Shown here: positions 53,510-57,510 of the stretch, one piece after another | Layout of the letters: every line of letters starts with the position of its first letter | Numbering within the stretch: position 1 is the stretch's first letter | From: Sulfuracidifex tepidarius | GTDB taxonomy: Archaea; Thermoproteota; Thermoprotei_A; Sulfolobales; Sulfolobaceae | NCBI RefSeq assembly: GCF_008326425.1 | Contig: NZ_AP018929.1 | Location: 1,688,875 to 1,752,874, forward strand | Length of the DNA: 64,000 nt | Direction: 5' to 3' | Position numbers and translations under genes: made by a program | Notes under the pieces: generated by a model | The model's input: only the letters and a program-made list of their open reading frames with translations | Told to the model about the DNA's origin: nothing | Database searches by the model: none

Positions 53510-53968
53510 TTGGTAGTTATACTTGACGCAACGGAAGGAGATCTAGCTAAGATCTACGAAATCGAAGTTCAGTCATTCGACCAGCCTTATTCATTGAAGC
53601 TGTTGAAAGCTTACTTATTTCTCTCTGAGGGCTTGTATATAGTAGCAAAGGAACACGATGAAATTTTAGGATATGCGATAGGATTAATACAGAATCGATT
53701 TAAGGGCCACGTTATATCAATAGCTACAGCCAGAGGAGCTAGGAGAAAGGGAATAGGCTCGGCCCTACTTCAGGAGCTCAATTCAAGGTTCGTGTCTATG
53801 GGCTCTACGTATTCTTATCTTGAAGTAGAAGTGAAGAATAGAGACGCTATAAGTTTCTACTCGCACAATAAGTACCATATATCGTATACAAGAAGAAATT
53901 ATTATGGAAAAAACAGGCACGCTTTCATAATGATTAAGTTACTGAAGGGGAATTACGATCTTGACTAA
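53510..53968 (+). CDS. GNAT N-terminal acetyltransferase (RimI/Ard1-like)
   Basis: A 152-residue GNAT enzyme. The acetyl-CoA-binding motif is ARRKGIGSALLQEL (Q/R-x-x-G-x-G/A form), and EVEVKNRDAISFYSHNKY is typical for N-terminal acetyltransferases. In Sulfolobales the Ard1 homologue acetylates many N-termini, including Alba. This one may be that enzyme or a paralogue. The TTG start at 53510 is supported by TAATATTC at 53480-53487; the ATG at 53491 is out of frame. Confidence 0.85.
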   Translation: MVVILDATEGDLAKIYEIEVQSFDQPYSLKLLKAYLFLSEGLYIVAKEHDEILGYAIGLIQNRFKGHVISIATARGARRKGIGSALLQELNSRFVSMGSTYSYLEVEVKNRDAISFYSHNKYHISYTRRNYYGKNRHAFIMIKLLKGNYDLD

Positions 53969-54176
53969 TGATCTACACGTAATATTAATGTCCACTACGC
54001 TTGAAAAAAGGAATTCTTTGAAAAACAGAGGGAAAATGAGGTGCGTAGTACCTTCTACCTTATATCTTTAAAATGATAGAAGTAGGCACATTCCTTTTCA
54101 AAAAGGTAAATAAAACAAAGAAGAGTGAACTGTCACTGATAATAGATTTTATTTTGTTAGTTCCTCTAAGGGCTTT

Positions 54177-56303
54177 ATGCTGAAAGAATTTTTTGTATTA
54201 GACTTTTCATACGAAAACGATCCTCTCCCAAAAGTGTACATTTGGGCAATCTCAGAGGATGGAAAAAGGAGCTTATTAGTTAAGGATAACTTCAATCCTT
54301 ATTTTTACGTACTTCCGAAAGCAGAAGAGAACCTAAAGGAGAGGATATTATCCTTGTCAAATAAGAACTTTAGAATAATAGACGTACAAGAGGTAAACAA
54401 ACCTTATTTAGGTAGAGACACTAAATTTCTCAAGGTAATATGTGATACTCCTAGTGCCATAAGGTATCATAGAGATGCTATCTCGAAGCTTGACTCTGTT
54501 AAGGGAATATATGAGGCTGACATAAGGTTTTCAATGAGGTTTTCAATAGATTCAGAGATACTTCCTTTCACTTGGATCGTCGCTGATGTAGAACCTACAG
54601 AAAACATGGAATTCAGGGTTGATAACGTATACAACGTTTCTTCAATTAAACCGAAAGTTAGGGAAGACACACCTGAATTGATGTTTATGGGTTTTGAACT
54701 ATCCATTGACAGCAAGTATGGCTTCATAAACCCCAGAAGGGATCCGATTTCCTCTTTATGCGTAAACCTAAATGGGAGAGAACAAAGGTTCGACAATGAC
54801 GGAGTGGACGATACAAAGCTAATAAAGGACTTCGTCTCGTTTGTAAAAGAGAACGATCCTGATATTATAGCTACTAGAAGTTCCTTTCAATGGAGGTACA
54901 TAATAGAAAGGGCTTCTTTCAGGAACATAAGGCTTGACGTTTCGAGGAAAGTAGGTGAGGAAGTATCCTCTGGGACTTACGGTCATTATTCGACTCCTGG
55001 TAGGTTGAATATAAACATCAATAAGTTTTTGCAAAATATCTTGAGGTTAGGATATGTAGAGTCACATAAGGATATTTACGCTTATTTCGGTATTCCTGAT
55101 AGTCAAGGTCAGTGTGAGTACGGAGGAAATTTGCTAGGTGAGATTATCAAGCTTGGTATGGGGCTCTCTAAACAGTTCGGAATGCCTATGGATCAATTGT
55201 TTTCAGCCAGTATGTTCTCAGCAATTGAATGGTACCTAGTGAGACAGAGTGTCGGACTCGGTCTCATAGTACCTAACAAGCATGATTCCGTTGCTAGGGT
55301 CGAGCCTAAGAGCAACATTACCGAATCAGTTGGAGGGTTATTTGAAGATGTGAACGGTTTCTTCTTCAATTTTATGCCACTTGAAATGCTTGAATCTTAT
55401 AACATAAGCCCTGAAACAGTAGAAGGCGGAGTTGAGACTAAAGGGTTTTTACCTAGTGTTTTGCCTTCACTATATAAGCAGATAGAGTCAGAAGCTAGGA
55501 AGAATTTCGGGGTTAGAGCGTTAAAGGATCTAACAACTACCTTGAGTAACAGTGTCATAGAATACTTCACATGGTCTGGGTCTAGATGGTTCTGCCCTCA
55601 GTGCAGGAAGAACCTGGAGAAATTGATTCTTTATGAAATGAAGAATAAGGTCGAGACCATAAAGAGAAAAGGGGCATCAGTTCTGTTCGCTAGGGGAAAC
55701 GTGATATTAGCTAAGGGGATAGACGAAGTCGAAAACACAATTAAAATTAAGTATAAGAGAGTAATTATAGGGGATGATTTCTTCATCGGTTTAGATAACG
55801 ATAACGTTATAGATCCTCTAAGCAGGGCCTTTCCTTACGGAGATTGGTCTGAGGTATCTAAGAAAGTTTACGTAAACATTGTAGATAAACTCCTGAAAGA
55901 GAATCCGGACTTAGCTATTAGAGAAGCGAGGGATGAGATAAAGAGAATTAGAAGGGGAGAGTTTGAGGTAAAAGAAATGATAATCTGGAAGGAAATAGAT
56001 AGAGACCTCTCAGTGTATAGACAGCCTTATCCGTTATTCGTGGTAGCAGCGATGAAAGCCAATAAGCAAGGCGGTAGCATAAACAGAGGAGATAGAATAG
56101 GGTATGTCGTCTGTGAGGGAGCAAGAATGCAGGACAAAGTCGAACCTTTCTTTATGGTGAAGGATAAGAGAAGGATAGATAAGGAGTTTTACGTGGAAAA
56201 ACAGATAATACCATTAGCTATGCGAGTTTTAAAACATGTAGGAGTGAAAGAAAAAGACTTGAGAGAGGGAGGATTCGATATATCAAATTACTTTAGGAGG
56301 TGA
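54177..56303 (+). CDS. Family-B DNA polymerase homologue, catalytic residues lost (PolB3 locus)
   Basis: A 708-residue protein with family-B layout but ruined active sites. The exonuclease I DIE position reads FELS (173-176); the exonuclease II FD reads FQ (237-238); motif A (DFxSLYP) reads FNFMPLE, with Phe396 where the catalytic Asp should be; motif C (YGDTDS) reads FARGNV (504-509), both Asp lost. NISPET (409-414) and RRDPI (187-191) remain, confirming homology. The place beside dnaG matches that of PolB3 in Saccharolobus as I recall. It may be a structural subunit or regulator of replication, or a diverged paralogue. Intact frame and normal start argue against a simple pseudogene. Confidence 0.78.
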   Translation: MLKEFFVLDFSYENDPLPKVYIWAISEDGKRSLLVKDNFNPYFYVLPKAEENLKERILSLSNKNFRIIDVQEVNKPYLGRDTKFLKVICDTPSAIRYHRDAISKLDSVKGIYEADIRFSMRFSIDSEILPFTWIVADVEPTENMEFRVDNVYNVSSIKPKVREDTPELMFMGFELSIDSKYGFINPRRDPISSLCVNLNGREQRFDNDGVDDTKLIKDFVSFVKENDPDIIATRSSFQWRYIIERASFRNIRLDVSRKVGEEVSSGTYGHYSTPGRLNININKFLQNILRLGYVESHKDIYAYFGIPDSQGQCEYGGNLLGEIIKLGMGLSKQFGMPMDQLFSASMFSAIEWYLVRQSVGLGLIVPNKHDSVARVEPKSNITESVGGLFEDVNGFFFNFMPLEMLESYNISPETVEGGVETKGFLPSVLPSLYKQIESEARKNFGVRALKDLTTTLSNSVIEYFTWSGSRWFCPQCRKNLEKLILYEMKNKVETIKRKGASVLFARGNVILAKGIDEVENTIKIKYKRVIIGDDFFIGLDNDNVIDPLSRAFPYGDWSEVSKKVYVNIVDKLLKENPDLAIREARDEIKRIRRGEFEVKEMIIWKEIDRDLSVYRQPYPLFVVAAMKANKQGGSINRGDRIGYVVCEGARMQDKVEPFFMVKDKRRIDKEFYVEKQIIPLAMRVLKHVGVKEKDLREGGFDISNYFRR

Positions 56304-57510
56304 AGAGATCTGAGAAAGTGAGTAATGTGACGTTCTTAGGTCTCTTATTGACTCCGCCTATTCTAGCTCCCGCTATTAATTTCACGTTCTTTTCGCTTGC
56401 AAGGTCGAGTAATCTCTGAGTTATTACTCCATCAAACACTATATACAACACTTTTCCGTCTTCTGCAGTTTCAAGTTTCGGTATTATGTCTCTAACTTGA
56501 ACTTTCTCTATCTGCTCCCAGTTGTTTCCGTACATAACCCCCTCTAAGGTTCCGGGTAATTTCTTGATTTCTTCTAAAATTTGCGGTGGGATTACTATCG
56601 GGACTTCAGTTTTCTTCTGTTCTGTCTCTTGGACTACGGCTTGTACAACACCTTGGGAAGATTCAGCGAGCTGAACTGGCATTTCCTGTCTCTTAAGGTA
56701 CTGTTGAAGCGGTACCATGTTCGATAGTGCTTTAGCTATTTCTTTCCCTGTAAGTTCCTCGACCTCCCTTCCTACTGGTGCTCTAGCTACGTAGTCTATC
56801 TTTACGTTATGGCTCTGTAGTTCCTTAAGGATTAGATCTCCACCGTGATCTCCGTCGACGAATGCAATTACTACCTTCTTGTTTTTGCTAAGTGATATCA
56901 GTGAGTCTGGTATCTTAGAATTAGCTCCTCCTACTGCTACAGTGTTTCTGTATCCATATCTCAACAAGTTTATTATGTCAGCCCTTCCTTCTACAATTAT
57001 TAACGTAGGATCTTTCTCCACATCAGGACCAGCAGGAAGTCTATCAGGACCGAATTCTATTATTTCTCCAACCTTTACTGCTGAGCTTATTTCATTCAGG
57101 ACTTCCTTTATGTCCAAGTTCTTTTCCTTGTTCCATACCGTTAGGATATCCTTAGCACGGTCTATTATCTTCTTCAGTTTCTCGGCCCTTATATCCTCTA
57201 CTTCTACCAATTCGAACTTGGAATTGTAAGGTCCTACCTTCTCTACGCTTTCTACCATTGACGCAATTAGCGCTGTTTCTATTCGATCTAGATTTGAAGG
57301 TATTATTACTTCGCCATCAGCTCTGTTCCCCTTAGGGTAGATCTCTACGGTTATTCTTCCAAGTCTTCCCTTGTCTTGCAGTTCCCTTAGGTCAAACTCA
57401 TCTCCAAACAAGTTTTCAGTTTGACCGAAGATTGCGCCTATTACGTCGGTTTTCTCGACTATTCCGTCAACTTGAAACTTAAGTTTTATATTATATTTCA
57501 AACTTATCAC
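56293..57510 (-). CDS. dnaG: Archaeal DnaG-like primase / exosome-associated protein
   Basis: A 405-residue archaeal DnaG. The TOPRIM domain shows LIIVEGRADIINLLRYG and VIAFVDGDHGG with the acidic metal ligands. In Sulfolobus DnaG has primase activity and also binds the RNA exosome. The GTG at 57510 overlaps the tyrS stop (GTGA), so it is co-transcribed with tyrS. Its end overlaps the polymerase-like gene by 11 bases in convergent orientation. Confidence 0.93.
   Translation of the reverse strand: MISLKYNIKLKFQVDGIVEKTDVIGAIFGQTENLFGDEFDLRELQDKGRLGRITVEIYPKGNRADGEVIIPSNLDRIETALIASMVESVEKVGPYNSKFELVEVEDIRAEKLKKIIDRAKDILTVWNKEKNLDIKEVLNEISSAVKVGEIIEFGPDRLPAGPDVEKDPTLIIVEGRADIINLLRYGYRNTVAVGGANSKIPDSLISLSKNKKVVIAFVDGDHGGDLILKELQSHNVKIDYVARAPVGREVEELTGKEIAKALSNMVPLQQYLKRQEMPVQLAESSQGVVQAVVQETEQKKTEVPIVIPPQILEEIKKLPGTLEGVMYGNNWEQIEKVQVRDIIPKLETAEDGKVLYIVFDGVITQRLLDLASEKNVKLIAGARIGGVNKRPKNVTLLTFSDLFTS

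What the first reader, a model, noticed from the sequence alone, without database searches (positions are those of the whole stretch)
54177..56303. Family-B polymerase next to dnaG with every catalytic motif destroyed
Residues replacing the exonuclease DIE and FD motifs and the polymerase motif A and C aspartates are all non-catalytic, yet the frame is intact, the promoter looks normal and other family segments persist. Its place next to dnaG is that of PolB3, which I recall as active in Saccharolobus. This suggests conversion of a polymerase to a structural or regulatory role.
Basis: partly seen in the sequence, partly recalled or inferred. Interest (0 to 1): 0.65.

Follow-up and report, generated by a model that had tools for sequence, protein, structure and literature searches.

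The report
Dead PolB3 polymerase in Sulfuracidifex
In a genus of heat- and acid-loving archaea, the DNA polymerase PolB3 has lost every residue needed to make or proofread DNA, yet evolution still protects the gene, its promoter, its uracil-sensing pocket and its sliding-clamp tag, so it probably now works as a DNA- and clamp-bound reader rather than an enzyme.

Summary
The 708-aa ORF is a vertically inherited PolB3 (dnaG synteny; tree), not PolB2. Both exonuclease and polymerase sites are destroyed: seven catalytic acidic residues read E/S/Q/Q and F/R/N, and about 28 residues around ExoIII are deleted. All three Sulfuracidifex genomes share this. The window's genome keeps an intact PolB1, plus PolB2 and PolY. 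The gene is not a pseudogene: dN/dS is 0.094 (omega=1 rejected, 2dlnL 336), frames are intact and a TATA-like promoter block is conserved.

Erosion is selective. The N-terminal domain, including all seven uracil-pocket positions, the thumb and the C-terminal PCNA motif persist; the palm is rewritten. AlphaFold gives a complete polymerase fold. I read it as a non-catalytic PCNA/DNA-binding factor, possibly a template-uracil reader (inferred).

PolB3 decays repeatedly in Sulfolobaceae: exonuclease residues lost in at least four lineages, the polymerase triad in at least two, including Saccharolobus solfataricus, whose PolB3 is usually called active. Sulfodiicoccus and HS-7 lack the gene. Nearly every PolB3 read outside the family was intact.

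The parts
54177..56303 (+). PolB3 ortholog, 708 aa, catalytically dead
54138..54156 (+). conserved upstream block GATAATAGATTTTATTTTG (TATA-like promoter of a probably leaderless mRNA; role inferred)
   Evidence: alignment of upstream DNA of three Sulfuracidifex copies
54210..54212 (+). uracil-pocket residue Y12 (Pfu Y7)
54297..54302 (+). uracil-pocket residues P41-Y42 (Pfu P36-Y37)
54459..54461 (+). uracil-pocket residue I95 (Pfu V93)
54513..54554 (+). EADIRFSMRFSIDS (aa 113-126), uracil-pocket strand with I116, F118, R121; longest block invariant in Sulfuracidifex
54696..54704 (+). ExoI site, DIE replaced by ELS
54879..54893 (+). ExoII site, NGFDW replaced by SS-FQW with 2-aa deletion
55128..55133 (+). 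junction of the ~28-aa deletion that removes the ExoIII region
55356..55388 (+). motif A site, VLDFSSMYPSI replaced by GFFFNFMPLEM
55521..55574 (+). motif B site, NAxYGYMGW replaced by NSVIEYFTW
55662..55700 (+). KRKGASVLFARGN (aa 496-508): overwritten motif C (YGDTD to FARGN), now itself invariant in the genus
55773..55790 (+). KKRY region lost (DD--FFIG)
56265..56300 (+). EGGFDISNYFRR (aa 697-708), PCNA-interacting motif at C terminus, invariant in the genus
56293..57510 (-). dnaG, convergent neighbour that marks the PolB3 locus
53510..53968 (+). RimI-like acetyltransferase gene upstream, part of the conserved order

Best explanation
The gene encodes the Sulfuracidifex PolB3, a polymerase turned pseudoenzyme. 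Shown by sequence: the exonuclease and polymerase metal-binding residues are all gone, the fold is predicted intact, and the gene evolves under purifying selection. Inferred: after a burst of change on the stem of the genus it became a non-catalytic protein that still binds PCNA through its C-terminal motif and DNA through its N-terminal domain and thumb. Most specific guess: it docks on PCNA at template uracil or hypoxanthine (deaminated bases, frequent in hot acid), marks or shields the site, and so steers which enzyme (UDG/BER, PolB1, PolB2 or PolY) acts next. My odds: vertical, catalytically dead PolB3 under constraint about 0.95; non-catalytic DNA/PCNA role about 0.75; uracil reader in particular about 0.35.
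For: Catalytic residues replaced in three independent genomes. dN/dS 0.094 against 0.033 PolB1, 0.021 dnaG, 0.051 PolY for the same pair (PolB1 partial in UBA167), omega=1 rejected, and omega under 0.14 in every domain tested. Conserved-column retention: N-terminal domain 0.76, thumb 0.63, exonuclease 0.47, palm A/fingers 0.29, palm C 0.19 (N-terminal versus palm Fisher p 5e-8). All seven uracil-pocket positions kept (one V to I, as in several other lineages). The four invariant blocks of 12 or more aa in the genus include the pocket strand, the rewritten motif C and the C-terminal PCNA motif (four such blocks by shuffling p 0.00045). AlphaFold pLDDT 84.9, pTM 0.80, best PDB match PolB3 5mdn Z 41.9. 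Promoter block conserved.
Against: dN/dS is 3-4 times that of PolB1 and dnaG, so constraint is weaker. Relatives have lost the gene (Sulfodiicoccus, HS-7) or carry it split by a transposase, so the role is dispensable in some lineages. The pocket lies in a domain that is kept as a whole, so the pocket is not singled out from its surroundings. The PCNA motif lacks the canonical Gln and has low model confidence. No binding, expression or phenotype data for this genus.
Confidence: 0.7

Rival explanations
1. Structural subunit: the dead PolB3 forms a complex with an active polymerase (PolB1, PolB2 or PolY), as proposed for other dead B-family modules such as the C-terminal half of Pol epsilon.
For: Complete polymerase fold kept; the rewritten motif C block is invariant in the genus, as a new interface would be. 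PolB1, PolB2 and PolY are all present.
Against: PolB3 of Sulfolobus did not bind the PolB1 subunits PBP1/PBP2 in two-hybrid tests (PMC5418573). Nothing in the neighbourhood points to a partner gene; no complex was modelled.
Confidence: 0.2
2. Gene on its way out: catalysis was lost first and the rest is decaying slowly; deletion follows, as in Sulfodiicoccus and HS-7.
For: Recurrent decay in the family; outright absence in three genomes and a transposase-split copy in one Metallosphaera; higher dN/dS than neighbours.
Against: dN/dS 0.094 at dS 0.87, no stops or frameshifts in three genomes, conserved promoter and blocks.
Confidence: 0.08
3. Hidden activity: the protein still makes DNA by other residues, as PolB2 (Dpo2), once called inactive, turned out to be a polymerase.
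For: Precedent of PolB2/Dpo2 (PMC8764526 abstract, PMC11791011).
Against: PolB2 keeps the motif A Asp and the distal motif C Asp; this protein keeps neither and has no nearby Asp. Motif B and KKRY are also gone.
Confidence: 0.05
4. It is an ordinary member of the known inactivated PolB2 clade.
For: Both are B-family proteins with disrupted motifs.
Against: PolB2 is a separate 545-aa gene in the same genome; tree puts the protein in PolB3 (99), PolB2 grouping AU p 0.013; PolB3 locus synteny.
Confidence: 0.01

Closest known systems
Crenarchaeal PolB3 (e.g. Pyrobaculum calidifontis, PDB 5mdn)
   Same: Orthologous locus, full-length fold, uracil pocket, thumb, C-terminal PCNA-type motif
   Different: All exonuclease and polymerase catalytic residues replaced; ExoIII region deleted
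Saccharolobus PolB3 (Dpo3, e.g. S. solfataricus)
   Same: Also lacks exonuclease residues and both canonical motif C aspartates; pocket kept
   Different: Keeps the motif A Asp and an Asp at the middle motif C position; less diverged; reported weakly active in vitro (PMC7785828 citing Choi 2011 and Bauer 2012)
PolB2 / Dpo2, the known 'inactivated' archaeal B-family clade (PMC2527604)
   Same: B-family protein with eroded exonuclease and polymerase motifs
   Different: Separate clade and locus; PolB2 keeps motif A Asp and distal motif C Asp, is shorter, and is active in translesion synthesis
C-terminal half of eukaryotic Pol epsilon
   Same: Dead polymerase module kept for a non-catalytic role
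   Different: Fused to an active polymerase; unrelated event

Membership tests
Archaeal PolB3 | Groups with PolB3 rather than PolB1 or PolB2 in a tree | tested here: met
   PolB3 one group, support 99
Archaeal PolB3 | Crenarchaeal PolB3 locus: rimI-polB3-dnaG order | tested here: met
Archaeal PolB3 | N-terminal, exonuclease, palm, fingers and thumb fold | tested here: met
   model matches 5mdn over 676 residues, Z 41.9
Archaeal PolB3 | Uracil-recognition pocket residues | tested here: met
   7 of 7 positions (V93 as I, as in other PolB3)
Archaeal PolB3 | C-terminal PCNA-interacting motif | tested here: met
   FDISNYF aligned with QKSLFDFF of outgroups, Gln absent as in all Sulfolobaceae; binding not tested
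Active B-family DNA polymerase | Motif A Asp and motif C Asp pair | tested here: not met
   F, R, N
Active B-family DNA polymerase | 3'-5' exonuclease residues D, E, D, D | tested here: not met
   E, S, Q, Q and ExoIII deletion
Active B-family DNA polymerase | Primer extension in vitro | not testable with these tools
   needs purified protein
PolB2 (Dpo2) | Membership of the PolB2 clade | tested here: not met
   AU p 0.013 for grouping with PolB2; own PolB2 elsewhere
PolB2 (Dpo2) | Retained motif A Asp and distal motif C Asp | tested here: not met
Pseudogene | Relaxed constraint, stops or frameshifts | tested here: not met
   omega 0.094, intact frames in three genomes

The most novel reading that the evidence does not exclude
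A DNA polymerase that lost all chemistry and was kept as a dedicated PCNA-tethered reader of template uracil or hypoxanthine, and that PolB3 in Sulfolobaceae generally works this way: its selected function is sensing, not synthesis, which is why catalysis could be lost repeatedly.
Probability: 0.3. Interest if true: 0.82.

Novelty: new variant of a known kind. Interest (0 to 1): 0.64.

Why it matters
PolB3 is the most widespread archaeal B-family polymerase and its role in Sulfolobales is described as unresolved (PMC7785828). In Sulfuracidifex it cannot be a polymerase, and in S. solfataricus it lacks the canonical residues, so the damage-sensitivity phenotypes of polB3 deletions in Sulfolobus islandicus (PMC8100216), whose PolB3 is likely of the same type, may reflect a non-catalytic function. 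The series from intact through exonuclease-dead to fully dead and lost copies makes this testable with catalytic-site and pocket mutants in genetically tractable species. Dead polymerases with a kept fold are rare and bear on how structural polymerase modules arise.

Tried and rejected
Membership of PolB2: rejected. Misalignment hiding intact aspartates: rejected, alignment is gap-free at ExoI and motifs A and C. Pseudogene: rejected by dN/dS and frames. Single shared loss of polymerase residues with Saccharolobus: the PolB3 tree alone cannot reject it (AU p 0.40), but the PolB1+DnaG tree rejects the implied species grouping (p 6e-10), so independent losses are the simpler reading unless the gene moved; a third loss inside Saccharolobus is only weakly supported (p 0.034). 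First FastTree runs placed Sulfuracidifex inside Saccharolobus with support 0.15, a likely long-branch effect. Link with uracil repair by gene content: UDG is in all 31 genomes, with or without PolB3, so presence is uninformative. Two IQ-TREE runs failed or timed out. Edgell 1997 and the JBC 2011 paper were not held; I recall that Edgell noted non-conserved substitutions in S. solfataricus B3, unverified. The paper searches that ran on PolB3/Dpo3 and its motifs brought up no report of dead PolB3 in the titles, abstracts and passages I read.

Full report
Observation. The ORF at 54177-56303 (+) is intact, 708 aa, and converges on dnaG with an 11-bp 3' overlap. It matches the B-family exonuclease domain and the thumb end of DNA_pol_B, and PDB best matches P. 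calidifontis PolB3 5mdn, E 6e-83. In the aligned family, ExoI DIE reads ELS, ExoII NGFDW reads SS-FQW, the ExoIII region is deleted (about 28 aa), motif A VLDFSSMYPSI reads GFFFNFMPLEM, motif B is rewritten, motif C YGDTDS reads FARGNV and KKRY is absent. At the seven catalytic columns the window has E, S, Q, Q, F, R, N. Register is gap-free at ExoI, A and C, so there are no displaced aspartates. Two other genomes agree: the MAG UBA167 (86% identity) and a complete genome of 2,191,724 bp (62%), the size published for Sulfuracidifex metallicus DSM 6482 (PMC10793343).

What it is. All 31 Sulfolobaceae genomes have dnaG; 28 have PolB3. In the genomes whose neighbourhood I read, the order pelota-rimI-polB3-dnaG is kept in the window, S. 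metallicus and S. solfataricus, and in G007 apart from its transposase. A tree of PolB1, PolB2 and PolB3 puts the protein in PolB3 (99) and grouping with PolB2 is disfavoured (AU p 0.013). The window's genome has its own PolB1 with DIE, DFASLYPS and YGDTD intact, a 545-aa PolB2 and a PolY.

Selection. Pairwise codon ML between the window and UBA167 gives omega 0.094 (dN 0.081, dS 0.87), with omega=1 rejected by 2dlnL 336; PolB1 (partial in UBA167) 0.033, dnaG 0.021, PolY 0.051. Each of six domains is under 0.14. Active PolB3 pairs give 0.02-0.05, the S. acidocaldarius-type pair 0.14, Saccharolobus pairs 0.17-0.27. The dS of pairs with S. metallicus is saturated, so those omegas are not used. 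The stem of the genus is long (1.6-2.1 changes per site), a burst followed by constraint. An 18-19 bp TATA-like block at 54138-54156 is conserved in all three copies.

What is kept. Of columns conserved in at least 85% of active PolB3 (the script's threshold; its printed header says 90), the window keeps 76% in the N-terminal domain, 63% in the thumb, 47% in the exonuclease domain, 29% in palm A/fingers and 19% in palm C; N-terminal against palm, Fisher p 5e-8. The seven positions of the Pfu uracil pocket (Y7, P36, Y37, V93, I114, F116, R119, mapped through the PDB alignment; pocket list from my knowledge of Fogg 2002, cited in PMC5911459) are Y, P, Y, I, I, F, R. The same pocket holds in all dead Saccharolobus copies (one F to Y) but is broken in G005, whose polymerase motifs are intact, so it can be lost. 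Four blocks of 12 or more residues are invariant in the genus: the pocket strand, 334-346, the overwritten motif C, and the C-terminal PCNA-type motif; p 0.00045 by shuffling, which ignores local correlation. AlphaFold gives a full polymerase fold, pLDDT 84.9, with the last ten residues disordered; 5mdn aligns over 676 residues, Z 41.9.

Family picture. The outside-family PolB3 rows of the motif table are intact, except one bathyarchaeal copy (L070) whose exonuclease residues are altered and two fragments that cannot be judged in full. Inside Sulfolobaceae, exonuclease residues are lost in at least four lineages and the polymerase triad in at least two. The genome identified as S. solfataricus through a Dpo4 identical to PDB 1jx4 has ExoI D-x-Q, ExoII P, ExoIII N and motif C N-D-L, with motif A Asp kept. 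This conflicts with the statement that S. solfataricus PolB3 holds the conserved motifs (PMC5911459), and sits oddly with reported weak activity (PMC7785828); contamination or a residual site could explain that, untested. Sulfodiicoccus (known, PMC6647314) and a 2.15-Mb genome of the size of strain HS-7 (PMC8459659) have no PolB3 at dnaG. In G007, a Metallosphaera-type genome, a transposase ORF lies inside polB3 whose motifs are otherwise intact.

Mechanism. Catalysis can be excluded with good confidence from sequence alone; that the protein is kept for binding is inferred from what persists. The PCNA motif, N-terminal domain and thumb suggest a clamp- and DNA-bound factor. The uracil pocket makes a template-uracil reader the most specific testable idea, about one in three. 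A structural partner role is the main rival.

Novelty. Inactivated B-family polymerases are known (PolB2, Pol epsilon C-terminal half), so this is a new variant of a known kind: a dead PolB3, in a clade called active. Substitutions in S. solfataricus B3 may have been noted in 1997 (recalled, paper not held).

Noticed in passing
L014, L187 (S. solfataricus-type genome G015): PolB3 of the model species lacks the ExoI Glu, ExoII and ExoIII Asp and both canonical motif C Asp, against the usual description as an active polymerase.
   Followed up: partly
L183 2122-3201: A transposase ORF splits polB3 in a Metallosphaera-type genome; the catalytic motifs downstream are intact, so the insertion looks recent.
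   Followed up: partly
L030 / L039 (G005): Opposite pattern: polymerase motifs intact, exonuclease dead, and uracil pocket broken (Y7 to T, V93 to W, F116 to P).
   Followed up: no
L182 (HS-7-size genome G004): No polB3 beside dnaG; an unrelated membrane-protein ORF lies there. Second genus without PolB3 besides Sulfodiicoccus.
   Followed up: partly
L070: A bathyarchaeal PolB3 with ExoI DIE replaced by SII and intact polymerase motifs, the only exonuclease-dead copy seen outside Sulfolobaceae.
   Followed up: no
L012, L011 (S. acidocaldarius-type): PolB3 with dead exonuclease and altered motif B but intact motif A and C aspartates; long branch and dN/dS 0.14.
   Followed up: no
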